Part shown: positions 29,250-51,123 of the stretch, one piece after another
How the letters are laid out: every line of letters starts with the position of its first letter
Numbering within the stretch: the stretch's first letter is position 1
NCBI RefSeq assembly: GCF_019890615.1
Contig: NZ_JAINVZ010000005.1
Span: forward strand, 310,001 to 374,000
Source of the DNA: Streptantibioticus parmotrematis
Lineage (GTDB): Bacteria; Actinomycetota; Actinomycetes; Streptomycetales; Streptomycetaceae
DNA: 64,000 bases
Direction of reading: 5' to 3'
Translations under genes and position numbers: made by a program
Notes under the pieces: generated by a model
Seen by the model: only the letters and a program-made list of their open reading frames with translations
Told to the model about the DNA's origin: nothing
Databases searched by the model: none

Positions 29250-30188
29250 TCACAACACGCTGCGCGCCGCCCACAACTCCCCGAAGAACCGGTGCTCGTT
29301 GACCCGGCGCAGCCAGGCGGCGCCGCTGCTGCCCCCGGTGCCGGGCTTGTTGCCGATGGTCCGCTCCACCACCAGCAGGTGCAGGGCCCGCCAGCGGGAC
29401 ATCGCCTCCGCGACGTCCATCAGTGCCTCCGCGAGCTGGAACACCTCGTCGGCCGGGCCCAGTTCGCGGTAGACGTCACGCCACGCCTGCTCGACGGTGG
29501 GGCAGTCGGGGCGCGGGCGGGCGGGATCGTGCCGCAGCGTGGCGGGGTCGATCGCGGCGCCCCGGCGGGCGAGCAGCGCCACCGCCGCGTCGTAGACGCT
29601 CCGCTCCTCCAGCGCCCGCCGCACCTGCTCGCTCACGTGCGGCACGCCCGTGTGCGGCGTGGTGAGCGAGGGCCGCTTGTTGCCCAGGACGAACTCCAGC
29701 ATCCGGTACATGTACGACTGGAGTCCCGACGCGTCGCCGAGGTGGTCGCGGAAGGAGTTGAACTCCGAGGGCGACAGCGTGCCCAGCACGTCCCACGTGT
29801 TCACCAGCAGATCGGCGACCTTGCGCAGCCTGCGCAACGACCACACCGCCGCGCCCACCGCGTCCGCGTCGAGGTCGTCGCGGACCCGCCGCAGATCCTC
29901 GTACATCAGCTTGAACAGCAGCTCCTTGACCTGTCCGAGGACGTAGAAGGTCAGCTCGGCCGGAGCGCCGGAACGCGGCTGCTGGAGCGAGTGCAGGACG
30001 TCGACGCTCTGGTAGTCGATGTACGGGGTGCGGGCCCCGTCGAAGGTCAGCACCGGACAGCCCCCGGTGGCGGCCGCCCGCGCGGCCCGTTGCGCGTCGT
30101 CGAGCCGGCCGAGGTCGCGTACGCCCGCGTCGAGAGGGCCGTCGGCGTCGGGCCGTGGCCGCACGTCGTGGGATGTGGATTGCCGCAT
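29250..30188 (-). CDS. Tryptophan 2,3-dioxygenase-like heme protein lacking the distal histidine
   Basis: 312 residues, TDO superfamily. Strong family blocks: L-S-P-S-E-F-N-S-F-R-D-H-L-G, S-G-L-Q-S-Y-M-Y-R-M-L-E-F-V-L-G-N-K and I-G-N-K-P-G-T-G-G-S-S-G. The proximal heme His is kept (A-L-H-L-L-V-V) as is the substrate-binding Arg (M-Y-R). At the distal His of bacterial TDO (I-Q-H-Q before the E-L-W-x-K segment) this protein has L-G-Q, a His to Gly change. It may give N-formylkynurenine or, like the MarE type, a mono-oxygenated indole. GGAGG upstream. Last gene of the methyltransferase-aminotransferase-TDO operon. Confidence 0.88.
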   Translation of the reverse strand: MRQSTSHDVRPRPDADGPLDAGVRDLGRLDDAQRAARAAATGGCPVLTFDGARTPYIDYQSVDVLHSLQQPRSGAPAELTFYVLGQVKELLFKLMYEDLRRVRDDLDADAVGAAVWSLRRLRKVADLLVNTWDVLGTLSPSEFNSFRDHLGDASGLQSYMYRMLEFVLGNKRPSLTTPHTGVPHVSEQVRRALEERSVYDAAVALLARRGAAIDPATLRHDPARPRPDCPTVEQAWRDVYRELGPADEVFQLAEALMDVAEAMSRWRALHLLVVERTIGNKPGTGGSSGAAWLRRVNEHRFFGELWAARSVL

Positions 30189-30239: not shown

Positions 30240-31487
30240 CTAGAGCGTGGCGGCGAACAGCGCGATCCGCCTGACACCCTCCCGTACGGTCTCGGTCTCG
30301 CCGCAGAACGCGAGCCGCAGCAGGCCGCGCGCCTCCGGCTCGTCGTCCACCGTCCGCACCTGCCCGGCGGCGTCGACCAGCGGCCGCAGCGCGAACCCGG
30401 GGCCCGCCGCCAGCGCCACGCCCTGCTCGGCCAGCAGCCGCGCGGCGAAGGTGTCCGCGTCCAGCCCGGTGGCCCGGCAGTCCAGCAGCGCGTACCAGCC
30501 GCCCGCGGGGAGCCGGGTGAGCAGCCCGGTGTCCAGGAGCGGCCGCACCGCGGTGTCCCTGGTGTGCCGGACCATCGCCTTGTTGGCGGCCAGGCACTCC
30601 GGCTCGCCCAGCGCGGCGATCCCGGCCAGTTGCACCGGCTCGGGCGGGCACATGATCGAGGCCTCCTGGACCGTGCGGACCGCGGCGGCGTGCCGCTCGT
30701 TGGGCGCCGTGACGTAGCCCAGCCGCCAGCCGGTCATGCCGTACCCCTTGGAGAAGGAGAAGGCGCTGAAGACGCGGCGCTCGTCCGGCGATACGTTTCG
30801 CTCCAGGCACGCCAACGAAGTGTGGTCCTCGTCGAACGCGAAATCCTCGTACGCCTCGTCGCTGATGACCGTCCAGCCGCGCGAGTGCGCGAGGTCCAGC
30901 AGGGCCAGCAGATGCCTCTCGTCGCAGACCGCGCCCGAGGGGTTGTTGGGGCTGTTGACCAGCAGGGTCCTGGGCCGGTCGCCGCCGATCCGGGCCAGCG
31001 CGTCGACGTCGGGCCGCAGGCGGTCGTCCAGGGGGTAGAACACCGGGCGCAGCCCCGTCAGCAGGCTCTGCTGGAGGTGGATCGGCCAGTGCACCGACGG
31101 CAGAAGGATCTCCGCGTCCGGGGCGGCCACCGCGTGCATCAGCGTCAGCAGGCCCTGCGTCGAGCCCGGGGTGACGAACACCAGATCGGCGTCGGTGTCG
31201 TGCCCGTTGCGGGTGGTGAGCTTGCGGACGAGGGCGGAACGCAGTTCGAGCAGTCCTTCCGCGGTGGTGTATCCGGTGCGGCCGTCACGCACCGCGGCGA
31301 GCACGGCGTCGGCGACGGCGGCGGGCGGACGGAACGCCGGTTCGCCCACGTGCAGCCCCAGCGCGGGCACGCCGTGCGTGGCCTCGTACTCGGTGACGGC
31401 GCGGAACACCTCGTGCACGCACGACGGGGGGATGTCCGCGACGGTGGGTCGCGCACTCGCCGCGCCGGGGGCCTGCGTGCTGATCAT
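30240..31487 (-). CDS. Class I/II PLP-dependent aminotransferase
   Basis: 415 residues, fold type I. PLP-binding residues: the Asn of N-S-P-N-N-P-S-G, Asp and Tyr of S-D-E-A-Y, and the Schiff-base Lys of S-F-S-K-G-Y-G-M-T-G-W-R near 245. The C-terminal Arg is in L-R-L-A-F. Its place directly before a TDO-like gene (51-bp gap) suggests an aromatic substrate: Trp/indolepyruvate or kynurenine interconversion. Aminotransferase-like oxidases such as the arginine desaturases share this fold, so the reaction type is not certain. Confidence 0.87.
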   Translation of the reverse strand: MISTQAPGAASARPTVADIPPSCVHEVFRAVTEYEATHGVPALGLHVGEPAFRPPAAVADAVLAAVRDGRTGYTTAEGLLELRSALVRKLTTRNGHDTDADLVFVTPGSTQGLLTLMHAVAAPDAEILLPSVHWPIHLQQSLLTGLRPVFYPLDDRLRPDVDALARIGGDRPRTLLVNSPNNPSGAVCDERHLLALLDLAHSRGWTVISDEAYEDFAFDEDHTSLACLERNVSPDERRVFSAFSFSKGYGMTGWRLGYVTAPNERHAAAVRTVQEASIMCPPEPVQLAGIAALGEPECLAANKAMVRHTRDTAVRPLLDTGLLTRLPAGGWYALLDCRATGLDADTFAARLLAEQGVALAAGPGFALRPLVDAAGQVRTVDDEPEARGLLRLAFCGETETVREGVRRIALFAATL

Positions 31488-32384: not shown

Positions 32385-32563
32385 GATTCGGGGGCCCGGT
32401 ACGGTGATGGGCGCCGTGATGCACGACGGCGCACAACCGGGATATTACCTGCCCCTTGAGTGACCGCGCTTTTGGCGCGGGCGAACTGCCATACTCCTCA
32501 AGGCGAACCGGAAAAATCCCACGCGTTAGTCGGATTAAAATTTCAGGAGATCAGGAGAGCGGT
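32385..32563. promoter_or_regulatory. Divergent promoter region of two methyltransferase operons
   Basis: 179 bp with no gene. The right end is AT-rich (GATTAAAATTTC at about 32531-32542), ahead of two purine-rich ribosome binding sites. It contains a hairpin CCGCGC-TTTTG-GCGCGG at 32464-32480. Confidence 0.5.
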
Positions 32564-33322
32564 GTGGTGAATCGGAGTTCCGCGCAGCGCGCACTGTCGG
32601 TCGGCGATCTTGACTTCGACGCCGCCTACCGTGGGAAACCGATGACGGCGGACTCCGAGCTCTCCCTCGGAGCGGTCCCGTGGGACATCGGTGGCCCCCA
32701 GCCGGTCCTGGTCGAGCTGGAGGAGTCCGGCGGCTTCGAGGGCCACGTCCTGGACGTCGGATGCGGCACCGGTGACAACGCGGTCTTCCTCGCCGAACGC
32801 GGCCACCGTGTCACGGGCGTCGACGGATCCCCGCACGCGATCGCGCAGGCCCGGCAGCGTGCCGGGGAGGCCGGCGCCGACGTGGAGTTCCTGGTCGGCG
32901 ACGCCACCCGGCTCGACGACGTCCCGCACCCGTTCGACACCGTCCTCAGCAGCGCGCTCTACCACTGCCTGCCGGAGGACACCCGCGACGACCACGTCGC
33001 CGCCCTGCACCGGGTCTGCCGACCGGGCGCCCGGATGCACCTGTTCACCTTCGGCGTCGACCTCCCCGACAGCTACCCCATGCCCACCCACATCGACCAG
33101 CGTGAACTGCGCCTGCGGCTGGGCGAGTCGTGGACCATCGACCACATCGAGCCGGTCCGTTACGCGACCTCGTTCACCCCCGACGCCCTGCGCGAGGTGA
33201 GCACGCGGCTGCTCGACCTGGCCGGCGGCGACTCCGAGCGGGCCCGCCGTGTCGACCACCAGGTCGACGCGGCGGGCCGCATCGCGCTGCGCATGTGGTA
33301 CGTCCGGGCCGTCCGCACATGA
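32564..33322 (+). CDS. Class I SAM-dependent methyltransferase
   Basis: 252 residues from GTG 32564 (GTG 32567 also possible), with AGGAGA upstream. Motif I is V-L-D-V-G-C-G-T-G-D-N near 64-74, the acidic residue is in G-V-D-G-S-P, and the loop S-S-A-L-Y-H-C-L-P is typical of small-molecule methyltransferases. The N-terminal Y-R-G-K-P and W-D-I-G-G-P-Q-P segment is common in a subgroup annotated near thiol/halide-type methyltransferases. Followed after 153 bp by a second methyltransferase; both belong to the NRPS region by position. Confidence 0.83.
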   Translation: MVNRSSAQRALSVGDLDFDAAYRGKPMTADSELSLGAVPWDIGGPQPVLVELEESGGFEGHVLDVGCGTGDNAVFLAERGHRVTGVDGSPHAIAQARQRAGEAGADVEFLVGDATRLDDVPHPFDTVLSSALYHCLPEDTRDDHVAALHRVCRPGARMHLFTFGVDLPDSYPMPTHIDQRELRLRLGESWTIDHIEPVRYATSFTPDALREVSTRLLDLAGGDSERARRVDHQVDAAGRIALRMWYVRAVRT

Positions 33323-33422
33323 AGTGCCACGGTCCCGCCCCGGGCGGCCGACCGGGCGCCCACCCGAGCGGCGGCACGCCTCAACCGCCCCCGTTGAACG
33401 GTCAGTTATCAGTAGACAGTGC

Positions 33423-33448
33423 GGCCCCCTCCTCGAAAGAGGGAGGCC
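33423..33448 (+). other. Imperfect GC-rich hairpin in the methyltransferase leader
   Basis: CCTCCTC-GAAA-GAGGGAGG with one bulged G, in the 153-bp gap 28 bp upstream of ATG 33476. It could be a partial terminator or attenuator between the two methyltransferase genes. Confidence 0.4.
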
Positions 33449-33475
33449 CCCACTCGGCCAGAGAGTGCCTTTGCG

Positions 33476-34924
33476 ATGACCATTGACAGTCCGGTGTCAG
33501 CCTACGGCCGTGCCGCGGCCCGCCTGTTCGACCAGCTCGGCAAGGTCTACGAGGACACCTATGGGCAACTGCCCGAACAACTCGCGGCCATCCACTGGCT
33601 GTTGGACCGCCTGCCCCCGCAGGCCAAGGTGCTGGACATCGGTTCGGGCACCGGCCGCCCCACCGCCCAGCTGCTGGCCGACGCCGGGCACCGGGTGACC
33701 GGCTGCGACGTCTCGCACACCATGGTGACGCTGGCCAGAACAGGTGTTCCGCAGGCCCGCTTCGCCTGGGTCGACGTCCGGGACCTGCCGGAGGCGCCGG
33801 GCACCTGGGACGCCATCACCGCGTTCTTCCCCCTGCTCCAGATGTCCCGGGCCGAGATCGTCGACACACTCGGCCGGATCGGCCGCTGGCTGGTCCCCGG
33901 CGGCCTGTTCGTCATGTCCACCGTGCCGTTCGACGCCGAGCACGCGGAACTCACGTGGATGGGCCACACCAGCCGCGCGTCCAGCTTCGCCGCCGAGGTC
34001 TACCCGCGGCTGGTGCGCGACGCCGGGCTCAGCATCCTGCGCCAGCACGAGAGCGTCTTCCACCCCGACTACCCCGGCATGGGCGCGGAGCAGCACCTGT
34101 TCATCTTCGCGACCAAGCCGGGTGACCCCTCCCGCGCCGCACCCGCCGCCGTGCCCTCCCACCACCGCGGCCCCCTGGAGCCCAACGCGCGGCACTGGGC
34201 GGCGATGGAGGCACGCTTCGACCGGCAGGACGTGCCGCTGATCGTGGACAGCCTCTCCGTCAACACCCGCGTCCTCGCCCTCGGCGGACGTACCGTCGCC
34301 GTCGCCCGTGACCTCGCCGACCGCCTCGGCACCGCCGACGCCGGACCGGACGGCCTCCAGGAGGAGGACGACGGCCGCATGCTGGGCGCGCTCGGCGTGA
34401 CCCTGCTGCCCGGCGCCGCCGACCGGCTGCCTCCGGTGGACCGTTCCTTCGACGCGGTGGTCGCCGCGTGGACGCTTCAGCGCACCGACGAACCCGACTT
34501 CGCGGTGGCCGAGATGGCCCGCGTCGTGGACCCCGGCCACCCGGAGGCCAAGGTCGTCCTGGTGCAGGACGCCCCCGACAACGAGATCATCGGCCTGTGG
34601 AACGGAGTCCGCGCCCCGCTGACCGGGGCGCCCGCGGACCCGCAGGGCCAACTGCTGCTCCGCGCCGCGCACGTGCTGTCCGCCCACGGCTTCGACGACA
34701 TCGCCGTGACCCGCCTCCCCATCGACGTGGTGTTCCCCGAGGCGGGTCCTGAGGCCCGGGCCAGGGCGGCGGCCCGGGCGCTGACCGCGCTGTGGAACGT
34801 GGGCCACCCGCAGCCGGTCCAGCTGCACCACGCGCTGCTGTCCGCGCTGCGCGGCCACTTCTGCGCGGGCACCGATCGCATCACCAACGACGCGGTGATG
34901 CTGCTCGCCCGGCCCCGGAGGTGA
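33476..34924 (+). CDS. Methyltransferase with two Rossmann domains, second one degenerate
   Basis: 482 residues. The first domain (about 1-215) is a normal class I methyltransferase: motif I V-L-D-I-G-S-G-T-G-R-P near 51-61, acidic G-C-D-V-S. The second half (about 250-480) repeats the fold, but the glycine-rich loop is replaced by V-L-A-L-G-G-R-T-V, while F-D-A-V-V-A-A-W-T-L-Q-R matches motif IV. It may be structural or may bind substrate. Start ATG 33476; the frame is open earlier, but the extra residues are Arg/Pro-rich. Tail to tail with the TauD gene. Confidence 0.82.
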   Translation: MTIDSPVSAYGRAAARLFDQLGKVYEDTYGQLPEQLAAIHWLLDRLPPQAKVLDIGSGTGRPTAQLLADAGHRVTGCDVSHTMVTLARTGVPQARFAWVDVRDLPEAPGTWDAITAFFPLLQMSRAEIVDTLGRIGRWLVPGGLFVMSTVPFDAEHAELTWMGHTSRASSFAAEVYPRLVRDAGLSILRQHESVFHPDYPGMGAEQHLFIFATKPGDPSRAAPAAVPSHHRGPLEPNARHWAAMEARFDRQDVPLIVDSLSVNTRVLALGGRTVAVARDLADRLGTADAGPDGLQEEDDGRMLGALGVTLLPGAADRLPPVDRSFDAVVAAWTLQRTDEPDFAVAEMARVVDPGHPEAKVVLVQDAPDNEIIGLWNGVRAPLTGAPADPQGQLLLRAAHVLSAHGFDDIAVTRLPIDVVFPEAGPEARARAAARALTALWNVGHPQPVQLHHALLSALRGHFCAGTDRITNDAVMLLARPRR

Positions 34925-34942: not shown

Positions 34943-35821
34943 TCAGGCCTGCGGGCGGGTGCCGTCGATGGCGATGCGGCGGCCGTAGCGCGAGTGCGGG
35001 TAATAGTCCCAGATCGCGTGGTGCTGGACGCAGCGGTTGTCCCAGAACACCAGCGTCCCCGGCTGCCAGCGCACCCGGCAGTGCAGCAGCGGGGTGCGCT
35101 CGATGTGGTCGTACAGCATCGCCAGCACCGCGTCGCTCTCCGTGCGGGACAACTGTGCGATGTGCGACGTGTAGGGCTGGTTGACGAACAGCAGCTTGCG
35201 GCCGGTGTCGGGGTGGCGCACCACGACCGGGTGCTCGTTGCAGGGCACCTCGTAGTTCTCCGGCGGGGTCTGGCCGGCGTTCCGCCACGGCAGCGCGCCG
35301 TCGTGGACGGCGGTCAGGCCCTCCAGGAACGTCTTCATCGCCGGGGAGAGCATGTCGTAGGCCAGGTGCATGTTGGCGAACATGGTGTCGCCGCCGCTGC
35401 CCGCCTCCGGGACGCGTGTGATGTGGAGCATCGACCCCAACGACGGTTCGGTGTCCGCGGTTCCGTCGGCGTGCCATCCGTTGCCCGCGATCGCACGTGA
35501 CTCTTTCCCCGCGCTGATCTCCAGGATGTACGGGTCGGAGCCGTCGACGGGGGCCGCGACGAGATGCAGCGGCCCGAAGAGTGCCGCGAAGCGCTTGTGG
35601 TCCTCGTCCGTCAGCGCCTGGTCACGGAAGACCAGCACGTGGTGGGCCAGGAACGCCTGCCGAACCTCGTCGACCTGATCAGGCGTCAGCTCCTTGGTGA
35701 GGTCCAGGCCCGACACCTCGGCGCCGATGACCGGGGTGAGCGGATCCACCCGGATGGCCGAGCAGTGCACCGGCGGCCGGGTGGTGACACGTTCGAGGGC
35801 GTCGAGTGCGAACTGTTCCAC
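34943..35821 (-). CDS. TauD/TfdA family Fe(II)/2-oxoglutarate dioxygenase, putative proline hydroxylase
   Basis: 292 residues. Iron ligands: the H-x-D of G-W-H-A-D-G-T near 117-123 and the distal His of V-Q-H-H-A-I-W-D near 266-273. The 2-oxoglutarate Arg is in Y-G-R-R-I-A near 281. The facial triad is complete, so hydroxylation rather than halogenation is expected. It follows the NRPS-PKS gene by 57 bp on the same strand. Because an A domain of that gene carries a proline code, hydroxylation of proline is the leading hypothesis, as in detoxin/rimosamide pathways; this is inference. Confidence 0.87.
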   Translation of the reverse strand: MEQFALDALERVTTRPPVHCSAIRVDPLTPVIGAEVSGLDLTKELTPDQVDEVRQAFLAHHVLVFRDQALTDEDHKRFAALFGPLHLVAAPVDGSDPYILEISAGKESRAIAGNGWHADGTADTEPSLGSMLHITRVPEAGSGGDTMFANMHLAYDMLSPAMKTFLEGLTAVHDGALPWRNAGQTPPENYEVPCNEHPVVVRHPDTGRKLLFVNQPYTSHIAQLSRTESDAVLAMLYDHIERTPLLHCRVRWQPGTLVFWDNRCVQHHAIWDYYPHSRYGRRIAIDGTRPQA

Positions 35822-35878
35822 GGGGGTTTCTCCTTGGGGTGTGCGGGGTCGGTGTGTGGCGGGCGGGTGAAAGACGGT

Positions 35879-38800
35879 TCACCGGGCGTCGGTGCGTGGC
35901 GTGTGCCCGTTGATCGCCTCGGTCACGTACTTGATCTCCGGCGGCCGCACGATGTCGTAGTGGCCGGTGTCCAACTGCCGCAGGGTGAACTGCGCGGGGA
36001 TCAATGCCCTCCAGACGGCGGCCTGTTCGTCCGCCGGAGCCGTCGTGGGCAGTCCCGGAGTCGGCCGGGTGGCGAGCCAGAGCGTGACCGGGGTACGGGC
36101 GAGGCCCGGCAGGCGGTGACCGACCATGCTGCGCAGGTTCGACCGGCAGCAGCGGGTCAGGCGGTCCGCGTACCGGCGTGCCTGGTCGCCGACCGCCTGA
36201 TCACCGTCCTGGCGGGCGAGTTCGTGGGCGAACACCGCGCGGATCTGCTCCTCGCCGTAGTCCCGGAAGACCTCTCCCGCGCCGGGCGGCGGCGGGTCGA
36301 CCAGGTACACGTGGGAGACGTCCCGCCCCTCCTCCTCCGCCACGGCGGCCATCGACAGCGCCACCCAGCCCCCGTACGACCACCCGGCCAGACGGCGCCG
36401 CCAAGTACCCGACGGGAACCGGGACTCCAACGCGGCGTCGTAGTGCGCCGCCCGCTCGGTGAGCGTCCACGACGACGCGGGCGCGTCGGGATCGCGCAGG
36501 GCGGGATCGGCGACCAGGCACACGGTGAGACGCGGATCGAGGTCCGCGACCAGCGGCCGGTACGCCTGCACGTCACCGCCCACCGGGTGGACCAGGCACA
36601 ACACCTCACGGCCGGTGCCCTCCTGCCAGACCTCCAGACGCACATCGTCCGGTTCGCGAGCCGGTGCGTCGGCGGCCACGCCGAGGTGGCCGAGGATCTC
36701 GTCGAGGCTGACCCGGTGGCTGAACCGGGACAACTCCAGCTCGACGCCGTAGCGTTGGTGGACCTCGGTGATCAGCTCCAGGAACGTCAACGAGTCGGCG
36801 CCCAGGTCGTACAGCGACGCCGTGGGATCGAGCGAGTCCGTGCCGAGCGCGCGGCACAGGAAGTCGGCGAGCTCCCGGGCGGTCGGCAGGGCATCGGGCG
36901 TTCCCTCCGGCACGGTCTCCGCGCGGGCCTGCGGCGCGTGCTCGGTGGACGTGGTGCCGCCGGCCGCATCGGTGGGGTCGTCCGCCGCGATCGGGGCGGA
37001 CGCCGCGCCGCTGTCCAGGGGCTCGTAGAACGACCGCGCCGCGTCGAGTGGCGTCGTGGAGACCATCAGATGCGGCAGTTGCAGCCGCAACGCGTCCGCG
37101 AACACCTGCCTGCCCTCGTCCGCGCCGATGCCGACCGCCAGATGGGAACGGTGACGGCTGTCGTGGTGCAGGGCGTGCGTCGCCATGCCGACGTCACGCC
37201 ACACGTCCCAGTCGACGGCGATACGCAGCGTCGTGTCGTCCGCTCCGGCGTGGTGCGCGGCGAAGCCGTCCAGCAGCCCGTTGGCCGCCGCGTAGTCGAA
37301 CTGGCCGACGCCGCCGAACCACGAGGCCATCGACGAGCAGTAGACGGCGACCGCCGGGCGGTGCTCCGCGACGAGCGCCTCGGTCAGGACCGCCCCGCGT
37401 AGCTTCACATCCGCCGCCCGTCGCATCGCGTCCGCGTCACGTCGTACGAGCAGGGCACCCGACGCGACGCCCGCCGCGTGCACGATGCCGTCGAGGCGCG
37501 CGCCGTCCGCCGCCAGTTGTTCCCGTAGGCGTTCGCGTACGCGGTCTGTCGGCTCCTCGGCCAGGTCGGCCGCGAACAACTCGACGCGGTCCGCCCAACG
37601 AGCCAATGTCCGCGGCACGTTGGGGTGGCGGGCGAGCAGGACGACACGGCAGTCGGTGGTGGCCAGCAGGTGCGCGGCGACACTCGCCCCGATCCCACCG
37701 GTGCCGCCGAGGACGAGCCAACGTGTGGGTTCCCCGCCGGTGTGCGGTGCGTCGCCGGTGTGTGGCGCCTGCCGCGCGAGTGTGGACGGGGCCGGGACCG
37801 GCTGGGGCGACGGTTGCCACCAGTAGCCCGAGCGCAGCGCGAGCCGCCCGGGCGACTCCGCCGCGTCGGCGCGCGTCAACACGGCAGCCAATGACGTGGA
37901 CCACGACGCCGGGTCGGGACCGGGCAGGTCGAGCCAGCGCGTGGACAGGCCGGTCTCCTGACGCGGCACCTGCGACGCACCGGCCAGCAAACCGAGTTCG
38001 GGGCGCCGCACCGGGCCGTCGACCGGCTGGGCGCCGTGCGAGAGCCACCACACGCGCACCTTCCCCGCGATGACGCCCTCGTTCTCGGCCAGGGCACGCA
38101 CCAGCGCGGCGGGCGTGTCGAGACAGGCCCAGCGGGCCCGCTCCACGGACGCCGCGCCGACCTCGCCGGTCACCGAAAGCGGCAGCGCGTGCAGCCAGTC
38201 CAGCCCTTCCCCCGTCTCCGGCGCCAGCGCGCGCAGCAGCAGACCGAGCGAGTCCGGGTCGGCGGGGTCGACGGTGTAACCGCCGTCGTCGCGCGGACCG
38301 AAGGCGTCACCGGCACTGACCAGGACCACCCGTCGGTACGCCGACGACACCGCCCGCCAGCCGTCCGCCCCGCCGGGCCCGGCCGTCAGGATCACCAGCA
38401 CGCGCGGGCAGACGCCCCCCACCGTGGGAGGCAGGGCCCGGGTCAGCCGCGCCCATACCGGCTGGTGCAACCACAGTTCCCGGGGCAGCCGCGGGGTCTT
38501 CCGGGCCGTCGCCGGGGCATCCTGCCGGGTCGCCGGGATCGCTTTCTGGGCCGCTTCCCGGACACCTTCTGCTTCGAGGCCGCGTTCGGCCCGGGGGAAG
38601 TCGTGGACGGAGCGGTCGAAGGCGGGCGGTGGGAAGTCCCACGGTGCCTGGGCGGGACCGGGAGTCCACCGGACCGGCCGCCCGGCCGCCCACGCGCTCG
38701 CCAGCCGCTCCGGTGCCTCGTCGGCGCCGAGCGGCTCCGCCTCCACCGGCTCCACCCGTGCGCCGGACACCGTTCGCAGCCAGGCGATCGCCGTGCCGAC

Positions 38801-41800
38801 GTCGCGGCAGGCCGTCGCCGCGCGCCACGGGTGGGCCGGGCGTCCCGCCTGGAGGTGGCGCACGACCCGGCCGTACATTTCGGGCCGGGCGGACAGGTAG
38901 TCCGCGATGTTGAGCGCGTCGGCGCGCAGTCCGGCGGCACTGCGACCGGACAGGACGAGGCAGTGGACAGGAGCGGGTTCGGACGGTGCGGGTTTCTCGT
39001 CGGCCTGTTCGAGGACGAGGTGGGCGTTGGTGCCGCCGATGCCGAAGCTGCTGACGGCCGCCACGCGGGGCCGCCCGGACGGCCAGGGAACGGCGTCGGC
39101 CGGCACGTGGAACGGGGCCGGGTCGTCCCCGATGTGCGGATTGAAGCGGCGGAAGCCGACGTTCGGAGGAATCAGGCCGTGGCTGACCGCGAGCGTGGCG
39201 CGGACCAGCCCGACCACACCGGCGGCGGCGCCGAGGTGTCCGATCTGGCTCTTGACGGACGACAACGCGCAACGTCCGGACTCGGCCAGTCCGAACGCCT
39301 GCCGCAGCGCGTCCACTTCGACCGGATCGCCGAGCCGGGTCGCGGTGCCGTGGGCCTCCACGTAGCCCAGGTCGGCGCTGTCGTGGCCGCTGCGGCGCAG
39401 GGCGGTCCGGATCACGTCGCGTTGTCCGGCGAGGGACGGCGCGCTGTAACTCAGCTTGTCCGAACCATCGTTGTTCACCGCCGAGCCGGTGATCACCGCG
39501 TACACCGTGTCGCCGTCGCCCCGGGCACGAGAGAGCGGCTTGAGGACCACGACGCCCACACCGCTGGCCCCGATGGTGCCGCCCGCGTCGTCGCTGAAGG
39601 GCCTGCACCGGCCGTCGGGGGAGAAGATGTGCTGCGGGCGGTAGGCGTAGCCGTCGGTGAGCTGGGTGTCGACCAGGACCCCGCCGACGAGCATCGCGTC
39701 GGCGTCGCCCTGCCGCAGCAGCCCGGCGGCGACGTGCACGCCGACCAGCGAACTGGCGCAGGCGGCCTGCACGGTGAGCGCGGGACCGGTCAGCCCCAGG
39801 TGGTAGGCGGCCTTGGTGGCGAGGAAGTCCTTGTCGTGGTGCAGGGCCATCTGGAAGGAGTCGGGCAGCGCGTCCGGATCGCCGTCACGCAGCATTGATG
39901 GGAAATAGGTGTTCTCCCCGCAACTGGCGACCAGGCCCACCCGGTGTGCCGCGGGGTCGGCGATGCCCGCGTGGGCGAGCGCCTCGACACAGCTCATCAA
40001 CAGGTGTCGTTGCTGCGGGTCCATCAGCCTGGCCTCCTGGCGGCTGATGCCGAAGTGGCCGGGGTCGAAGGCGAGCAGCCCGTCCATCTGGCTGCGGGCG
40101 CCCACCCTGCCGTCCGCGGTCTCGAAGTGCTCGACGCCCTCCGTGCCCGTTTCGACCATGCGCCAGAACGCGGCAAGGTCCGGGGCGCCGGGCAGTCGCA
40201 CCGCCATGCCGACGACGGCGATCGGCTCGTCGGGAAGGGAGCCAACGGGATTTTTGGGTGCGGGAGTTGCGCGTTGAGGAGCCGTTGCCGGGACGAGCGC
40301 GGACGCGCGGTCGTCGAGGAACCTGCTGAGCGCGCGGATCGTGACGTGCTCGAACAGATCGGGTACGCCGAAGTCGAGATCAGGTTCCGCCGCGCAGCGG
40401 AGCTGAAAGCGCATCAGGTCCAGACTCGTGGTCCCCGTGTCGAAGAACCGTTCCTCAGGCTCAGCCTGACACCCCGTCGCGGCCTCGAACAGGTCGGTCA
40501 GCCGCCGCTCGCGGTCCGACAGCACGCGGTCGTCGTCCCGGCCCCCGCCGCTGTCGTCCGTGCTCGACCGCCACACCGCCCGGCGGTCCAGCTTGCCACT
40601 GGGCGTACGCGGCAGTTCGCGCAGACGCCGGAAGCGCCGGACGCGCATGTGGGGCGGGAGCAGCGTGGCGAGATGGTCGCCGAGGTCCGCGGGTGGCCGG
40701 TCCCCGTCCCGCCACTGGAGACATCCCACCAACTGCCCGTCGTGGAGCAGGACGACGGCCCGCGTGATCCGCGGATGACGCAGCAACGCGGTCTCGATCT
40801 GGCCGAGTTCCACGCGGTGGCCGCTGACCTTGACCTGTTCGTCGTCGCGTCCGGCGTAGTGCAGCAGGCCGTCGGGGCCGAAGCGCGCCAGGTCACCGGT
40901 GCGGTAGAACGTGCCTGCTTCGGCGCGGGTGGTGAAGCGGTCCGTGTCGAGCTGCTCGTCGCCGAGGTAACAGGGCCCGGCCATCGGGCCGCCGATCAGC
41001 AGGTGCCCGGTGCGTCCCGGAGGCAGGGGCAGGCCGCTGTCGTCGACCACGAGCAGGTGGGCGGCGGCCACCGGCCTGCCGATGGCGGGGCGGTCCGGCC
41101 AGTGGGCGGGGTCGCCGTCCAGGCACAGGGCGCTGACCACGTGTGTCTCGGTCGGCCCGTAGTGGTTGAACAGCCGGGCGCCGGGCAACCCGGCGAACCA
41201 GCGCCGGATCGCGTCGGTGCACACCAACTGCTCGCCCGCGGTGACGACTTCGCGCAGACGCGACGGGTAGCGGTCCAGCAGGACGGCGTGTTCCGCGAGC
41301 AGGCTGAGTGCCACGTAGGGCATGAAGATCCGCTCGACGGCCGCGTTCTCCAGCTGCTCCAGCAACGCGGGCATGTCCTGGCGCCAACCGTGCCGGATCA
41401 GGTGCAGTGTGCCGCCGCCGCAGAGCGTGCCGAAGATCTCCTGGAACGAGACGTCGAACGACAGCATCGAGAACTGCTGGGTGACCGCCGGGTGCCCGAG
41501 ACCGCCGTCCGCAGCCTGCCACGACAGCAGGTTGCACAACGTGGCGTCCGGAACCCGCACGCCCTTGGGCGTGCCCGTGGAGCCGGAGGTGAACAGCACG
41601 TACAGCGGTCGCGTGCCGTGATGGGGCCGCAGGGGTGCCGGTGCGGGCGGGGACTGGCGGAGGACGACCGGGTGCCGGGGCACGTCCGCGTCGGCGACCT
41701 CCTCCGGCGTGTCCTGCTCGCCGGGTGCCGTCAGGACGCACAGCGGCTCGACACGGGCGACGATCTGCCGTAGCAACGCGGGCGGGTAGGCCGGGTCGAG

Positions 41801-44800
41801 GGGGACCGCGGTGAGGTTCAGACGGGCCAGCGCGAGCAGCGCCACCACGTGCTCGATCGACGGGGGCAGGTGCAACGCGACACACGCGGGGGCGTCGGCA
41901 TCGGGCAGGATGTGACGTTCCGTCAGTTCGATTGCCAACGCGGCTGCCTGGGCGTCGAGTTCACGGTAGCTGAGCGTACGGCCGTCGCAGGTCACCGCCG
42001 GGGCGTGCGGGGTGCGCCGCGCCTGGCGGTCGAATCCCTCGGCCACCGTGGTGAAGCCGGGCGCGGCCGGTGCGCCGAGGCCGGGGTCGGCAAGCGCACG
42101 CCGGTAGGGCACAACGAGGTCGGCCGGGCTCTCCGTGCCGCCCGCCGTCAGCAGGTCCACGCCCCGCGCGAACAGCATGGCCAGGGCCTCGATGTCGGCC
42201 GTGTCGAAGTGGTCCTCGTCGTACTCCCACAGGCAGTCGAGTCCGTCGCCCTGTTCCACGACGGACAGCGTCAGCGGGCACTTCGCCCGCGCGGGCTGGA
42301 GGAACATGGGGCGGCACTCGACGCCGCGTGGCGCCAGCGAACCGAAGTCCGTGTTCTCCAGCACGAACATGAAGTCGAAGGGCGCGGCGCCACCACGCGG
42401 CTGCCAGCTCCGCAGCACGTCGGCGAGCAGCACGTCCTGCCGGTCGAGAACGGCCTGCGCGGCCGAGGCGACAGACCGCAGCTGGTCGGCGAGCCGGGCG
42501 CTCGGGTCCAGGGCGACGGGCACGAGCACGGTGCCCGCGAACATGCCCACGCTGGACTCGAACTCGGGCAGCGGCCGACCGGTCACCGGCGCGGCCACGA
42601 CCGGCGCGGTCTGCCCGGTGACGCCGTACACACCCCACGCGTACGCGCTCAGCAGGACCTGGAAGCGGGTCAGGCCGAGCTCGGCGCCGAGCCGGTCCAC
42701 GGCGGTGCGGCGCACGAGGTCGAGCGAGGTGCGCACCAGCCGCGCCGGAGCGCGCCCTGACGTACCCCGTGCGGCCTCCAGCGGAGGGGAGACCGGCTCC
42801 AGGCCGCCGTAGTACGCGCCCAACTCCTCGTTCAGCGCCCGGTATTCGTCGTGTGCGCGCCACTTGTCCTGCCACACCGCGAGGTCGAGCGGCGTGGCGA
42901 CGGACCGCGCGTCGTCGGCGGGCTCGCCGCCCGCACGCTCGGTGCCGTCCAGCGCCGCGTCGTACAGGCACGTGAGGTCGCGGAACAGGACGTTGAGGGA
43001 CCAGCCGTCCACCGCGATGTGGTGCAGGAGCAGCAGGAGCGTGCCGCCGTCCGGAGCCGGCAGCCATCCGGCTCTCAGCATGCGGGGATCGGTGAGGTCG
43101 AACGGCAGCCGTGACAGCTGTCGCATCCCGGCCTGCGCGTCGAGCCGGTCCGCGTCCTCGATCGGATGCCACGGGTCGTACGGCGCCGCCACCCGCTGCC
43201 CGAGTCCGCCCGGTGTGGCCTCGAACGCGGTGCGCAGGGCGACGTGGCGTTCGACGAGCCGTCGCAGCGCGTGGCGCAGCGCCGCGAGGTCCACCGTGCC
43301 GCTCAGACGGAACGCGAGGGGCACGTCGTAGGCGTGGGATTCGGGGTCGCGTTGCTGGATGAGCCAGAGCCGTTGCTGCTCCGAGGTGGCCGGGGCACTG
43401 TCGCGGCCGGTCGGCGACACGGGCAAGGGAGGGCGGACTCGGTGCTCCGCGGCCCGGCCCGCCTCGACGGCCTCGGCCAGAACGGCGAGGTCGCCGCCGA
43501 GCACCACCGCCTGCGGCACGTCGCAGCCGTAGCGTCTTCGCACCTCGAAGCGGAGCCTGAGCGCCTTGAGGGAATCGCCGCCCAGGGGGATCCACCGGTC
43601 GCGCAACCGCGGACCGTCGGTGCCGAGGACGCCGGCCGCGAGGTCCAGGATCTCACCTTGCCACGGCGTCACGTGGGAGTCCGCCTCACCGCCCGGACGC
43701 CACGGCTCGACGGACCGCTCCAGCAGCGCGTCCCCGTCCACCTTCCCGTTGCCCGTCAACGGCAGGGCGTCCACCACGTGGAGATGGTGCGGCCGCATGT
43801 AGGCGGGCAGACCCGTGGCCAGGTGCCGGTCGACGTCGTCGTAGGACAGCTCGCCGCGCGGGACCAGGTAGGCCAGCAGTTCGTTGGCGCCGTCGGCGTC
43901 GCGACGGGTGCGCACGTAGGCCTGCCGGATCGCCGGGTGGGAGGTCAGGCAGCGTTCGACCTCGCCCGGCTCGATGCGGAAGCCGCGCACCTTGACCTGG
44001 CGGTCGGCCCGGCCCACGTAGGTGATCAGGCCATCGCTGTCCCGGCGCACCAGATCACCGGTGCGGTACCAGCGCGTGCGGCCGTCGTCATGCCACGGCA
44101 GGGTGACGAAGCGCCGCGCGGTCTCCTCCGGCAGATTGCGGTACCCGGCGGCCAGGCCCTCGCCGGACAGGTACAGCTCCGCGACCTCGCCCGGTCCGGC
44201 GGGACGCGTGCCGTCGGCGACGACGAGGGCTCCTGTGCCGGGCAGCGCTGTTCCCAGGGGCACGACGTCGGCGTCGAAGTCGCGCGGTATCGGATGGCAG
44301 AGCGCGAACGTCGTGGACTCCGTCGGCCCGTAGACGTTGAAGAGCCGGGTCGCGGAGGTGGCCGCGTTGTGCCGGTACCACCGGCCGATCAGCGCCGCGT
44401 TGAGCTGCTCACCCCCGACGAGCACCTGCCGCACCGGGGCGAAGCAGTCCGGCACCTTGTCCGTCACCGCGTTGAACAGCGCGACCGTGAGGAACATGGT
44501 GTCGACGGCTTCGCGCCGCAGCGCCGCCGCGAGCGCGTCCGGCGTCTGGACGTCCTGGTCGGAGAGGATCACACAGGTGCCGCCGGTCAGCAGCGGCACC
44601 CACACCTCGAAACTGAGGGCGTCGAAGGCCGGGTTGGACAGACACGCGTAGCGGGCACCCTCCGCCAGATCGACGTAGCCCTCGCGGGCCAGCCGCAGCA
44701 CCCCCGTGTCCAGCACCTCAACGCCCTTGGGACGACCGGTACTTCCGGAGGTGTAGAAGAGGAAGGAGAGGGTGGGATCAGCGCCCGCGCGGTCCTGTTC

Positions 44801-45310
44801 CGCCACGGCACCCGTCGGCGTGTCCGCGCACGGCTCGGCCGCCCCTCTTCTCCCGGCGGCCGACCGCGGTCGGCCGGAATCGAGCAGCGCGGACGACGGG
44901 ACGGCGACAACGCCATCGGGCAGCGCCTCCGGGAGGCCGCCGTCGTCGTGCACGACGACGGCGGCGCCCGCGTCGCGGAGGATGTGTTCGCGCCGCTCGG
45001 GCGGGCTCTGCGCGTCGAGGGGCACGACGACGGCACCCGCCCGCAGCACTCCGAGCATGACGCAGACCAGCCGCCAGGAACGCGGCAGGCACACGGCGAC
45101 GGCCTGCCCGGGCCGCACACCCCGCCGCCGGAGGGAGTCCGCGACACACGCGCTCAGCCGCTCCAGTCCCGCACGATCGACGACGTGCCCACCGTCGACC
45201 ACGGCGGCCGTGCGCGGGACGCGTCGCGCGTCGGCGAGCACGGCGCGGACCAGCGCCGACGCCGGGGGAGTGGAGGCGGCCGGGAACGCCGCCGTCGCAC
45301 CCGGGGTCAT
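35879..45310 (-). CDS. Hybrid NRPS-PKS: A-PCP-C-A(Pro)-PCP-KS-KR-ACP-TE
   Basis: 3143 residues. A1: core T-S-G-S-T-G-R-P-K-G near 190, G-P-T-E near 327. PCP1: G-G-D-S-L near 577. C: H-H-I-A-V-D-G near 766. A2: near 1090-1580. PCP2: G-T-T-S-L-D near 1629. KS: near 1695-2095, Cys in A-A-C-A-S-S-L near 1850, His in E-A-H-G-T-A and G-H-L-G. KR: G-G-T-G-G-I-G near 2537, Ser/Tyr in C-S-S-M-A-S and F-D-Y-A-A-A-N. ACP: A-D-S-L near 2836. TE: G-W-S-Y-G-G near 2977. Hand-read codes: A1 DAFALGVTFK (aliphatic-like), A2 DVQVVAHVVK (proline type). No AT between KS and KR. The ATG overlaps the upstream NRPS stop. Confidence 0.9.
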   Translation of the reverse strand: MTPGATAAFPAASTPPASALVRAVLADARRVPRTAAVVDGGHVVDRAGLERLSACVADSLRRRGVRPGQAVAVCLPRSWRLVCVMLGVLRAGAVVVPLDAQSPPERREHILRDAGAAVVVHDDGGLPEALPDGVVAVPSSALLDSGRPRSAAGRRGAAEPCADTPTGAVAEQDRAGADPTLSFLFYTSGSTGRPKGVEVLDTGVLRLAREGYVDLAEGARYACLSNPAFDALSFEVWVPLLTGGTCVILSDQDVQTPDALAAALRREAVDTMFLTVALFNAVTDKVPDCFAPVRQVLVGGEQLNAALIGRWYRHNAATSATRLFNVYGPTESTTFALCHPIPRDFDADVVPLGTALPGTGALVVADGTRPAGPGEVAELYLSGEGLAAGYRNLPEETARRFVTLPWHDDGRTRWYRTGDLVRRDSDGLITYVGRADRQVKVRGFRIEPGEVERCLTSHPAIRQAYVRTRRDADGANELLAYLVPRGELSYDDVDRHLATGLPAYMRPHHLHVVDALPLTGNGKVDGDALLERSVEPWRPGGEADSHVTPWQGEILDLAAGVLGTDGPRLRDRWIPLGGDSLKALRLRFEVRRRYGCDVPQAVVLGGDLAVLAEAVEAGRAAEHRVRPPLPVSPTGRDSAPATSEQQRLWLIQQRDPESHAYDVPLAFRLSGTVDLAALRHALRRLVERHVALRTAFEATPGGLGQRVAAPYDPWHPIEDADRLDAQAGMRQLSRLPFDLTDPRMLRAGWLPAPDGGTLLLLLHHIAVDGWSLNVLFRDLTCLYDAALDGTERAGGEPADDARSVATPLDLAVWQDKWRAHDEYRALNEELGAYYGGLEPVSPPLEAARGTSGRAPARLVRTSLDLVRRTAVDRLGAELGLTRFQVLLSAYAWGVYGVTGQTAPVVAAPVTGRPLPEFESSVGMFAGTVLVPVALDPSARLADQLRSVASAAQAVLDRQDVLLADVLRSWQPRGGAAPFDFMFVLENTDFGSLAPRGVECRPMFLQPARAKCPLTLSVVEQGDGLDCLWEYDEDHFDTADIEALAMLFARGVDLLTAGGTESPADLVVPYRRALADPGLGAPAAPGFTTVAEGFDRQARRTPHAPAVTCDGRTLSYRELDAQAAALAIELTERHILPDADAPACVALHLPPSIEHVVALLALARLNLTAVPLDPAYPPALLRQIVARVEPLCVLTAPGEQDTPEEVADADVPRHPVVLRQSPPAPAPLRPHHGTRPLYVLFTSGSTGTPKGVRVPDATLCNLLSWQAADGGLGHPAVTQQFSMLSFDVSFQEIFGTLCGGGTLHLIRHGWRQDMPALLEQLENAAVERIFMPYVALSLLAEHAVLLDRYPSRLREVVTAGEQLVCTDAIRRWFAGLPGARLFNHYGPTETHVVSALCLDGDPAHWPDRPAIGRPVAAAHLLVVDDSGLPLPPGRTGHLLIGGPMAGPCYLGDEQLDTDRFTTRAEAGTFYRTGDLARFGPDGLLHYAGRDDEQVKVSGHRVELGQIETALLRHPRITRAVVLLHDGQLVGCLQWRDGDRPPADLGDHLATLLPPHMRVRRFRRLRELPRTPSGKLDRRAVWRSSTDDSGGGRDDDRVLSDRERRLTDLFEAATGCQAEPEERFFDTGTTSLDLMRFQLRCAAEPDLDFGVPDLFEHVTIRALSRFLDDRASALVPATAPQRATPAPKNPVGSLPDEPIAVVGMAVRLPGAPDLAAFWRMVETGTEGVEHFETADGRVGARSQMDGLLAFDPGHFGISRQEARLMDPQQRHLLMSCVEALAHAGIADPAAHRVGLVASCGENTYFPSMLRDGDPDALPDSFQMALHHDKDFLATKAAYHLGLTGPALTVQAACASSLVGVHVAAGLLRQGDADAMLVGGVLVDTQLTDGYAYRPQHIFSPDGRCRPFSDDAGGTIGASGVGVVVLKPLSRARGDGDTVYAVITGSAVNNDGSDKLSYSAPSLAGQRDVIRTALRRSGHDSADLGYVEAHGTATRLGDPVEVDALRQAFGLAESGRCALSSVKSQIGHLGAAAGVVGLVRATLAVSHGLIPPNVGFRRFNPHIGDDPAPFHVPADAVPWPSGRPRVAAVSSFGIGGTNAHLVLEQADEKPAPSEPAPVHCLVLSGRSAAGLRADALNIADYLSARPEMYGRVVRHLQAGRPAHPWRAATACRDVGTAIAWLRTVSGARVEPVEAEPLGADEAPERLASAWAAGRPVRWTPGPAQAPWDFPPPAFDRSVHDFPRAERGLEAEGVREAAQKAIPATRQDAPATARKTPRLPRELWLHQPVWARLTRALPPTVGGVCPRVLVILTAGPGGADGWRAVSSAYRRVVLVSAGDAFGPRDDGGYTVDPADPDSLGLLLRALAPETGEGLDWLHALPLSVTGEVGAASVERARWACLDTPAALVRALAENEGVIAGKVRVWWLSHGAQPVDGPVRRPELGLLAGASQVPRQETGLSTRWLDLPGPDPASWSTSLAAVLTRADAAESPGRLALRSGYWWQPSPQPVPAPSTLARQAPHTGDAPHTGGEPTRWLVLGGTGGIGASVAAHLLATTDCRVVLLARHPNVPRTLARWADRVELFAADLAEEPTDRVRERLREQLAADGARLDGIVHAAGVASGALLVRRDADAMRRAADVKLRGAVLTEALVAEHRPAVAVYCSSMASWFGGVGQFDYAAANGLLDGFAAHHAGADDTTLRIAVDWDVWRDVGMATHALHHDSRHRSHLAVGIGADEGRQVFADALRLQLPHLMVSTTPLDAARSFYEPLDSGAASAPIAADDPTDAAGGTTSTEHAPQARAETVPEGTPDALPTARELADFLCRALGTDSLDPTASLYDLGADSLTFLELITEVHQRYGVELELSRFSHRVSLDEILGHLGVAADAPAREPDDVRLEVWQEGTGREVLCLVHPVGGDVQAYRPLVADLDPRLTVCLVADPALRDPDAPASSWTLTERAAHYDAALESRFPSGTWRRRLAGWSYGGWVALSMAAVAEEEGRDVSHVYLVDPPPPGAGEVFRDYGEEQIRAVFAHELARQDGDQAVGDQARRYADRLTRCCRSNLRSMVGHRLPGLARTPVTLWLATRPTPGLPTTAPADEQAAVWRALIPAQFTLRQLDTGHYDIVRPPEIKYVTEAINGHTPRTDAR

Positions 45311-49485: not shown

Positions 49486-50325
49486 GCTCGGTTCTTCCCC
49501 TCGACGGAGGGACGGGCGCCGGTGCGTGGCGTGCCGCACGGTGTGACGGCAGCATGGAGTGCCGAGGGCATGCCGACAACGGACAACGTTGCCAGCACGG
49601 TTCACCGGTGCGGGGACCGAAGGCCGCGCGGGGGCGCCAACCTCCTCATGGGCAGCAGGGCGTGACGGAACGGAAGCGCGCCTGACCTGTGAAGACGCTG
49701 GGGGTGCGGGCAGGGCGCACGGCGATAATTGATCAGGTCCCGGTATCTGTCAATGGCTGCCCGGAATGCGACAGGCGGCCACTGTTCCTTGCCTTTTTGT
49801 CTCTTGACGCGGCGGTCGGCGCGGTGGGTAGTCTGCTCTTTCCGTTTGCCTTGACTGCTGCTCCGGCAGCGGCTGTTCAGTGTCCTCGTGGGATATCGAA
49901 GGCGCGGCTCGACGGCCTCGCGGACTTCGGGAACGGCGTTCGGCGCGGGTCTCGCGCTCGGGGCCGAGCGAACCGGCCCGCCGCCCTGGTATGGTCGCTG
50001 AACAGCCGCAAATCCCCCGGGCGTTGGGGGCGTTGAAGAGGTGCGCGCGGTGCCGTGGATCGGCCTCCCGCTGCCAGTCGATTCCTGTCGAGCTGCCCGG
50101 GCGATTACCGATCACCGATTATCGCGTGGGCCTGCCGAACGACTCGGCCACACCGCTCGGTGAACCCGGATCGATCAACCGGTGACATTCCCGGTGTGCG
50201 ATGGGAAATCCACTCGTGTGGCTCGTGCGGCTCGTACGATGGGAAATTCACGTGTGCGGCACGCGGATGGAAGTCGGCGGCACGGGCGGGTGATGGGGGC
50301 TGGGCGTTGCCCGACCCCCTGTCGT
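49486..50325. other. 840-bp region without a convincing gene; NRPS promoter side
   Basis: It should hold the promoter of the NRPS operon at its left end. No frame has protein-like composition over its full length. AT-richer patches occur near 49725-49760 and 49785-49870. An 11-bp direct repeat CGATGGGAAAT lies at 50199-50209 and 50237-50247. A remnant of an older gene or element is possible but nothing is recognisable. Confidence 0.5.
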
Positions 50326-50874
50326 TCACGACGGCCGGCCGCCGAACTGCCAGTCGTGCACCTCGATATCGGCGTACCGCTCCGAGGTGAGGACGGCGCG
50401 CGCCGCCTCCGCGTCCGGCGCGCGCAACAGCGCCGCCGTCCCCAGCCACTTGGCGCCGTCGTCGGAGAGCAGCGGCCCGTACGCGATCACCTCGTCGATG
50501 TCCTTCGGCAGGCCGAGGTCGACAGCCGGGCCGGAACCGAGGCCGAGCACCAGATAGCGGTTGCCCCCGGTACGGCCGCCGGGGAAGTCCCACATGGTCC
50601 TGCCCAGCGCGTTACGCCACCGTCGCACCATGACGTCGCGATACACACCTGCCTGGTAGGTGGGCTCGTCGAACGCGAACGCCCGGGCGGCAGCAGGGCC
50701 GGGGAGGTCCACTATGTGCACGCTGCCGGTCGGCTCGTCATCGGCGGAGAGCGTCGGGCCGCGCGCGATCAACTCCGCCGCGTACCCGTCCATGTAGGAC
50801 CAGTGCTCCTCCAGCATCTCGTCGCGCAACGCGAGTGAACCGGGCCGGTCCCTGTGGTAGCAGAAGAATTCCAT
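50326..50874 (-). CDS. YCII-related domain protein
   Basis: 182 residues from ATG 50872-50874. Two ferredoxin-like halves: residues 1-95 resemble YciI (M-E-F-F-C-Y-H-R-D-R-P, then E-E-H-W-S-Y-M and the conserved L-I-A-R-G-P-T-L), with the Asp-rich turn S-A-D-D-E-P-T-G-S-V; the second half has G-P-L-L-S-D-D-G and W-L-G-T-A-A-L-L, a second, more diverged copy. YciI-like proteins carry a His-Asp pair of unknown catalytic role. Divergent from the lipoprotein gene at 51124; no evident link to the NRPS cluster. Confidence 0.75.
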   Translation of the reverse strand: MEFFCYHRDRPGSLALRDEMLEEHWSYMDGYAAELIARGPTLSADDEPTGSVHIVDLPGPAAARAFAFDEPTYQAGVYRDVMVRRWRNALGRTMWDFPGGRTGGNRYLVLGLGSGPAVDLGLPKDIDEVIAYGPLLSDDGAKWLGTAALLRAPDAEAARAVLTSERYADIEVHDWQFGGRPS

Positions 50875-51123
50875 GCCCACATCCTTCACGAACGGGCTCC
50901 GTACCGCTCTCCTGTTTCCGCTCGGCCTGCATGGCACTCGCCCGCCGTCGCACGTCCGACACGACTCGCCGTGGCGACTGGGCAGTTCTGCCCAATGCCG
51001 ATGCCGCCCCGACGACAGACACGACCCACGCAACTACCCTTCGTTGCACGGCAGATGACGGCCCAACGGGCTCGTTCACGGGACCGATGAAGATCTCCTG
51101 GCGACGGACGACGAGGGAACGCG

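What the first reader, a model, noticed from the sequence alone, without database searches (positions are those of the whole stretch)
29250..30188. TDO-like enzyme in which the distal active-site histidine is glycine
By block alignment from memory with the Xanthomonas TDO, I-I-Q-H-Q-T-S-E-L-W matches Y-V-L-G-Q-V-K-E-L-L here, so the distal His is Gly. The proximal heme His, the substrate Arg and the G-T-G-G-S-S-G loop are kept. The S-G-F-Q-S block has Leu for Phe. This pattern suggests altered chemistry, for instance MarE-like mono-oxygenation to an oxindole or acceptance of a bulkier, methylated tryptophan.
Basis: partly seen in the sequence, partly recalled or inferred. Interest (0 to 1): 0.75.

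Follow-up and report, generated by a model that had tools for sequence, protein, structure and literature searches.

The report
Tryptophan dioxygenase with swapped distal residue
A second, secondary-metabolism copy of tryptophan dioxygenase really has glycine where textbook enzymes have the distal histidine, but its whole lineage had already lost that histidine, and the glycine always comes with a polar residue (glutamine, once histidine) reaching in from the neighbouring subunit, so it is most likely still a ring-opening dioxygenase, perhaps for a modified tryptophan, and not a MarE-like oxindole maker.

Summary
The gene lies on the MINUS strand (29250-30188); Gly85 aligns with the distal His55 of Xanthomonas TDO, and the proximal His, carboxylate Arg, both Tyr, Phe51 and the GTGGS loop are kept. 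The interpretation needs correcting. (1) Streptomyces kynurenine-pathway TDOs, including this genome's own copy beside kynureninase, carry Thr/Ser there, so His was lost before Gly arose. (2) Gly TDOs form one clade (support 96/95), and each of the 13 carries Gln (12) or His (1) at position 28, a residue contributed by the neighbouring subunit that sits against position 55; other TDOs nearly always carry Leu/Val/Ala/Gly there. The distal polar group appears moved across the subunit interface (inference). (3) MarE keeps His55 and has SLGGR; GTGGS favours dioxygenation. MarE-like chemistry is therefore unsupported. (4) Gly-clade relatives lie beside or fused to DUF6875 (tryptophan 7-hydroxylase family), or in a halogenase/kynureninase operon, suggesting ring-substituted tryptophan opened to N-formylkynurenines. 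In the window the TDO belongs to a five-gene cassette (TDO, aminotransferase, three methyltransferases). The adjacent detoxin/rimosamide-like NRPS-PKS is a separate 17-kb block absent from a sister genome. Substrate and product are unproven.

The parts
29250..30188 (-). TDO-like heme oxygenase gene (312 aa), Gly clade
29934..29936 (-). codon GGA, Gly85 = distal position (XcTDO His55)
30009..30011 (-). codon CAG, Gln60 = XcTDO position 28, the neighbouring-subunit residue over position 55; Gln (once His) in all Gly-clade members
   Evidence: packing stated for MarE in PMC11904535
29748..29750 (-). Arg147 = XcTDO Arg117, binds the substrate carboxylate
29724..29735 (-). DASG loop 152-155 (PASG in human TDO, DATG in MarE)
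   Evidence: PMC11904535
29379..29381 (-). His270 = XcTDO His240, proximal heme ligand
29328..29342 (-). GTGGS active-site loop, residues 283-287 (SLGGR in MarE)
30240..31487 (-). PLP fold-type I aminotransferase (Aminotran_1_2), same operon direction
   Evidence: retained in sister genome
31563..32384 (-). SAM methyltransferase MT1 (phosphoethanolamine N-MT-like best solved relative)
32456..33322 (+). SAM methyltransferase MT2, nearest solved relative Rv0560c, a quinolone methyltransferase
33419..34924 (+). SAM methyltransferase MT3, 501 aa, with a second degenerate MT-like half
34959..51959 (.). block absent from the sister genome (carries the detoxin/rimosamide-like genes); NOT part of the TDO cassette
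   Evidence: blastn junctions 34958/51960

Best explanation
The gene encodes a TDO-family heme dioxygenase recruited to a small secondary-metabolite cassette (TDO, aminotransferase, three methyltransferases). It most likely still inserts both O2 atoms and opens an indole ring to an N-formylkynurenine. The distal hydrogen bond that His55 gives in textbook TDOs is probably supplied by Gln60 from the adjacent subunit (position 28), a swap fixed once at the base of a Gly clade. The small Gly leaves room on the N1/C7 edge of the indole, so the natural substrate is likely a substituted Trp: 7-hydroxy- or chloro-Trp in relatives, possibly a methylated Trp here. Downstream, a formamidase encoded elsewhere, the aminotransferase and the methyltransferases would give a methylated kynurenine or quinolone (kynurenate-type) product. 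Shown: residues, clade, loop, gene neighbourhoods, cassette independence. Inferred: the Gln role, substrate, product and downstream steps.
For: All other key TDO active-site residues and GTGGS kept; purifying selection, dN/dS 0.17. Gly is a single-origin clade nested in Ser/Thr actinobacterial TDOs, UFB/SH-aLRT 96/95. Position 28 is Gln in 12 and His in 1 of 13 Gly members, Leu in 19 of 19 His members, Val/Ala/Gly in most Thr/Ser members (91 sequences); in MarE, position 28 comes from the neighbouring subunit and His55 sits beneath it (PMC11904535). Gly-clade relatives: adjacent DUF6875 (L069, L071, L076) or fused (L002-L004, L082); DUF6875 proteins are heme proteins that include Trp C-7 hydroxylases (PMC13307353). 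L080: Gly TDO beside alpha/beta hydrolase, Trp halogenase, flavin reductase and kynureninase, which makes sense only if the TDO product is an N-formylkynurenine. GTGGS drives dioxygenation (PMC12312684). Cassette intact without the NRPS block in the sister genome. MT2's nearest solved relative is a quinolone methyltransferase.
Against: No biochemistry on any Gly-clade member was found. This genome and its sister lack DUF6875 and the cassette lacks halogenase, formamidase and kynureninase, so the substrate argument comes from relatives. Only a weak arylformamidase match exists in the genome (41 bits, under cut-off). The AF2 model is poor (pLDDT 62) and gives no tetramer or heme, so the Gln60-Gly85 contact rests on the published MarE geometry. 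The Gly/Gln pair arose once, so coupling is not statistically independent evidence.
Confidence: 0.6

Rival explanations
1. MarE-like enzyme: loss of the distal His stops the reaction after one O-atom transfer and gives a 2-oxindole of a methylated tryptophan made by the neighbouring aminotransferase and methyltransferase.
For: Aminotransferase plus methyltransferases next door could make beta-methyl-Trp, as methylation of indole-3-pyruvate is known in the zigralone pathway (PMC13307353); DASG resembles MarE DATG.
Against: MarE keeps His55 and Leu28 and lacks GTGGS; sequence match to MarE is marginal, E 0.015; MarE H55A still forms product, even more of it, so His55 is not the mono/di switch; GTGGS favours dioxygenation. 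No cupin-type isomerase in the cassette.
Confidence: 0.1
2. Plain L-tryptophan dioxygenase: the Gly/Gln pair is a neutral variant, the enzyme simply makes N-formylkynurenine from L-Trp for the aminotransferase and methyltransferases.
For: Distal His is dispensable across actinobacterial TDOs (Thr/Ser); aminotransferase and a quinolone-MT relative fit a kynurenate route; the cassette has no ring-oxidising gene.
Against: Position 28 is polar in every Gly member across sequences down to about 50% identity, which argues for a kept role; relatives sit with Trp hydroxylase-family or halogenase genes.
Confidence: 0.25
3. The TDO makes a kynurenine-type building block for the adjacent NRPS-PKS (35879-49605), for example an acyl cap of a detoxin/rimosamide-like peptide.
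For: Genes are contiguous in the window; C-A-T-TE, A-T-C-A-T-KS-KR-T-TE and TauD match the rimosamide/miramide layout.
Against: The sister genome keeps the whole TDO cassette but lacks the 17-kb NRPS block, its best TauD matches being only 38%; the miramide and pseudotetraivprolide papers mention no tryptophan enzyme.
Confidence: 0.08

Closest known systems
Bacterial tryptophan 2,3-dioxygenase (XcTDO 2NW7/2NW8, CmTDO 2NOX)
   Same: Fold family, proximal His, carboxylate Arg, Tyr24/27, Phe51, GTGGS loop; best PDB match 2NOX, 202 bits
   Different: Gly for distal His55, Gln for Leu28, Leu for Trp61, Leu for Phe126, Phe for Tyr113
Streptomyces housekeeping TDO (L005, beside kynureninase, same genome)
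   Same: Same family, also without the distal His
   Different: Thr/Val at positions 55/28, about 40% identity, kynurenine-pathway neighbourhood
MarE (8VYY, 9CA3)
   Same: HDAO superfamily, secondary metabolism
   Different: His55/Leu28 kept, SLGGR loop, marginal sequence match E 0.015
DUF6875-TDO fusion proteins of S. griseofuscus, S. rochei, Nocardiopsis terrae (L002-L004)
   Same: Gly55/Gln28 clade, 51-56% identity
   Different: Carry an N-terminal DUF6875 (Trp-oxidising heme protein family); the window gene is standalone and its genome has none
XcTDO H55A and H55S mutants (3BK9, 3E08)
   Same: Laboratory versions of a TDO without the distal His
   Different: No compensating change at position 28

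Membership tests
Tryptophan 2,3-dioxygenase family (PF03301) | Pfam model over cut-off | tested here: met
   170.4 bits against cut-off 34.9
Tryptophan 2,3-dioxygenase family (PF03301) | Proximal His, substrate Arg, GTGGS/T loop | tested here: met
   H270, R147, 283-GTGGS-287
TIGR03036 trp_2_3_diox equivalog | Score over curated cut-off 390.7 | tested here: not met
   283.2 bits; the genome's housekeeping TDO also misses it at 354.9, so the test is not discriminating here
Canonical (textbook) TDO | Distal His55 | tested here: not met
   Gly85; Thr/Ser in Streptomyces TDOs
Tryptophan 2,3-dioxygenase family (PF03301) | Heme binding and N-formylkynurenine formation | not testable with these tools
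   needs purified protein
MarE-type 2-oxindole monooxygenase | SLGGR loop | tested here: not met
   GTGGS; PMC11904535, PMC12312684
MarE-type 2-oxindole monooxygenase | His55/Leu28 pair as in the MarE structure | tested here: not met
   Gly85/Gln60
MarE-type 2-oxindole monooxygenase | Close sequence kinship to MarE chains | tested here: not met
   profile match E 0.014-0.015 against 5e-49 for XcTDO
Detoxin/rimosamide-like cluster (neighbouring block) | C-A-T-TE NRPS, A-T-C-A-T-KS-KR-T-TE hybrid, TauD dioxygenase | tested here: met
   against PMC9503745; applies to 34943-49605, not to the TDO
Detoxin/rimosamide-like cluster (neighbouring block) | TDO cassette belongs to the cluster | tested here: not met
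   cassette present without the block in sister genome

The most novel reading that the evidence does not exclude
A natural TDO lineage has moved the distal hydrogen-bonding residue from its own subunit (position 55) to the partner subunit (position 28, Gln or His), opening the N1/C7 side of the pocket so that hydroxylated, chlorinated or methylated tryptophans are ring-opened in antibiotic-type pathways, in some members as a single protein with a tryptophan hydroxylase.
Probability: 0.42. Interest if true: 0.65.

Novelty: new variant of a known kind. Interest (0 to 1): 0.46.

Why it matters
The role of the distal residue in TDO/IDO is a long-running question. This clade offers natural double replacements (55 and 28), including one with His at position 28, to test whether an inter-subunit side chain can take over. 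The DUF6875-TDO fusions suggest an alternative route to 3-hydroxykynurenine-type units in which the indole is hydroxylated before ring opening. It also corrects two traps: distal Gly is not a marker of MarE-like chemistry, and the TDO cassette is not part of the adjacent NRPS-PKS cluster.

Tried and rejected
Lymphostin cluster: considered at first because of the NRPS-PKS plus TDO layout; dropped when the NRPS/PKS/TauD layout matched detoxin/rimosamide clusters. TDO as a supplier of an acyl cap to that NRPS: rejected after the sister genome showed the cassette alone. Sequencing error at Gly: rejected (independent genomes). DUF6875 as specific to Gly: rejected, since Ser-type TDOs also lie beside it. 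The Arg at 162 was first used as the substrate Arg; correct numbering gives R147. AF2 model: only pLDDT 62 (5-sequence alignment), confirms the TDO fold (2NOX TM 0.68) but not the pocket. Promoter/terminator scan: nothing. A conserved cassette elsewhere: MT1 search of 395 Streptomycetaceae genomes found orthologues above 50% identity only in the two genomes of this genus.

Full report
CHECK OF THE OBSERVATION. It is a Trp_dioxygenase protein (Pfam, 170 bits); the best solved relatives are bacterial TDOs, CmTDO 2NOX (E 1.3e-58) and XcTDO 2NW7 (8.8e-37). The alignment has no gap around the distal residue: XcTDO EMLFIIQHQTSELW against ELTFYVLGQVKELL, so His55 is Gly85 (codon GGA at 29936-29934). 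Using XcTDO numbering, the pocket reads Y24 Y27 F51 R117 L120 S124 H240 and GTGGS all kept, with L28Q, H55G, W61L, Y113F and F126L. A sister genome (Streptomyces sp. ICBB 8177, L001) carries a 95% identical copy with the same Gly, and dN/dS between the two is 0.17, so this is a working gene.

IS LOSS OF THE DISTAL HIS UNUSUAL? Less than it looks. The same genome has a second TDO next to a kynureninase-like gene (L005: TDO 1498-2433, kynureninase-like ORF 237-1505, recognised by its sequence, not scanned), whose distal residue is Thr (FLVTTQVMELW). I collected TDO homologues from 395 Streptomycetaceae, 396 phylum-wide and 395 class-wide genomes plus named contigs and read the residue from alignments. 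Among 91 sequences, outgroup Actinobacteria and the proteobacterial references have His (19), Streptomyces kynurenine-type and many others have Thr, specialised paralogues have Ser, and 13 have Gly. In a maximum-likelihood tree of 64 of them the Gly sequences are one side of a branch (96% ultrafast bootstrap, 95% SH-aLRT; 98% of bootstrap trees), nested within Ser/Thr sequences (100/100). So the history is His, then Thr/Ser, then Gly. The step from His was taken before the clade of interest arose.

A COUPLED CHANGE. Position 28 tracks position 55: His55 goes with Leu28 (19 of 19), Thr55 mostly with Val28, Ala28 or Gly28 (37 of 40), Ser55 with Ala28 or another hydrophobic residue (19 of 19), and Gly55 with Gln28 in 12 and His28 in 1 of 13 (first seen). 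In the MarE structure, position 28 comes from the neighbouring subunit and 'His55 is positioned beneath Leu28' (PMC11904535). I infer that the polar group that contacts the indole edge has been moved from one's own helix to the partner subunit. In L018 (locus L080) it is a His. This is inference from sequence and a relative's structure: I could not measure distances, the AF2 model is weak (pLDDT 61.9; fold confirmed against 2NOX), and since the Gly/Gln pair arose once the coupling is not independent statistical evidence.

CHEMISTRY. Replacing SLGGR by GTGGS in MarE raises dioxygenation nearly fourfold without ascorbate (PMC12312684), and MarE H55A makes more product than its parent in spite of weaker binding (PMC11904535). 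So the distal His is unlikely to be the switch between mono- and dioxygenation, and a GTGGS enzyme is expected to dioxygenate. Human IDO turns over 1-methyl-Trp and several 5-substituted tryptophans, so base catalysis by a distal residue is not needed (PMC4692220, PMC5350241).

NEIGHBOURHOODS. In G049, G171 and G329 the Gly TDO is next to a DUF6875 gene (a P450 gene is also nearby in G049 and G171); in S. griseofuscus, S. rochei, N. terrae and G222 DUF6875 is fused N-terminally to the TDO; in G360 it precedes the TDO but is broken. DUF6875 proteins are reported as heme proteins that oxidise tryptophan, including C-7 hydroxylases (PMC13307353 and its reference 24). In G220 (L080) the TDO lies with an alpha/beta hydrolase, a tryptophan halogenase, a flavin reductase and a kynureninase, next to an A-PCP protein: halogenation of Trp, ring opening, deformylation, kynureninase is the natural order (as I recall it for chlorokynurenine in taromycin; not tested). 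That context argues for true dioxygenation of a ring-substituted tryptophan by a Gly-type TDO. Ser-type TDOs also lie close to DUF6875, so this partner is not specific to Gly. The window genome and its sister have no DUF6875 at all.

THE CASSETTE IN THE WINDOW. Going out from the TDO: aminotransferase (30240-31487), methyltransferase MT1 (31563-32384), and divergently MT2 (32456-33322) and MT3 (33419-34924). MT2's nearest solved relative is Rv0560c, a quinolone methyltransferase; the aminotransferase resembles aspartate/aromatic enzymes. Beyond lies a detoxin/rimosamide-like set: TauD (34943-35821), A-T-C-A-T-KS-KR-T-TE (35879-45376) and C-A-T-TE (45307-49605), the layout described for rimosamide and miramide. 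The sister genome has the cassette and the outer flanks but skips window 34959-51959 (blastn), so the two are independent units. MT1 orthologues above 50% identity were not found outside this genus among 395 genomes.

CONCLUSION. Most likely a dioxygenase that opens the ring of tryptophan or a substituted tryptophan, feeding an aminotransferase/methyltransferase cassette toward a methylated kynurenine or quinolone. Ring opening about 0.75 likely, substituted substrate about 0.45, kynurenate-type end product about 0.35, Gln60 taking over the distal role about 0.5. These figures are my judgement.

Noticed in passing
window 34943-49605: Detoxin/rimosamide-like gene set (TauD, hybrid NRPS-PKS, C-A-T-TE NRPS; AT-less KS), within a 17.0-kb block missing from the sister genome between 34958 and 51960.
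   Followed up: partly
L005 237-2433 (genome contig C3): Housekeeping kynureninase-like and TDO pair; this Streptomyces TDO has Thr at the distal position and Val at position 28.
   Followed up: yes
L080 6897-12290: Kynureninase, flavin reductase, Trp halogenase, alpha/beta hydrolase and Gly55/His28 TDO side by side next to NRPS genes: a chloro-kynurenine/anthranilate pathway by layout.
   Followed up: partly
L002 9290-10816; L003; L004; L082 14255-15733: DUF6875 (Trp-oxidising heme protein family) fused to TDO in one polypeptide; neighbours in L002 include aminotransferase III, amidase and aminotransferase I/II; L004 also has a P450, cucumopine-synthase-like protein, SDR and arylamine N-acetyltransferase.
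   Followed up: partly
L078 / G360 C1:3346603-3348107: DUF6875 coding sequence in front of the TDO is split into two pieces with an in-frame TGA: possibly broken by an insertion.
   Followed up: no
L034 (G020): Divergent TDO with Thr55, Glu56 and His28: another instance of His at the inter-subunit position.
   Followed up: no
window 33419-34924: MT3 has two methyltransferase-like halves; the second lacks a normal SAM motif.
   Followed up: no
L074 17695-19260 (G245): Gly-clade TDO next to a FAD_binding_3 monooxygenase and without DUF6875.
   Followed up: no
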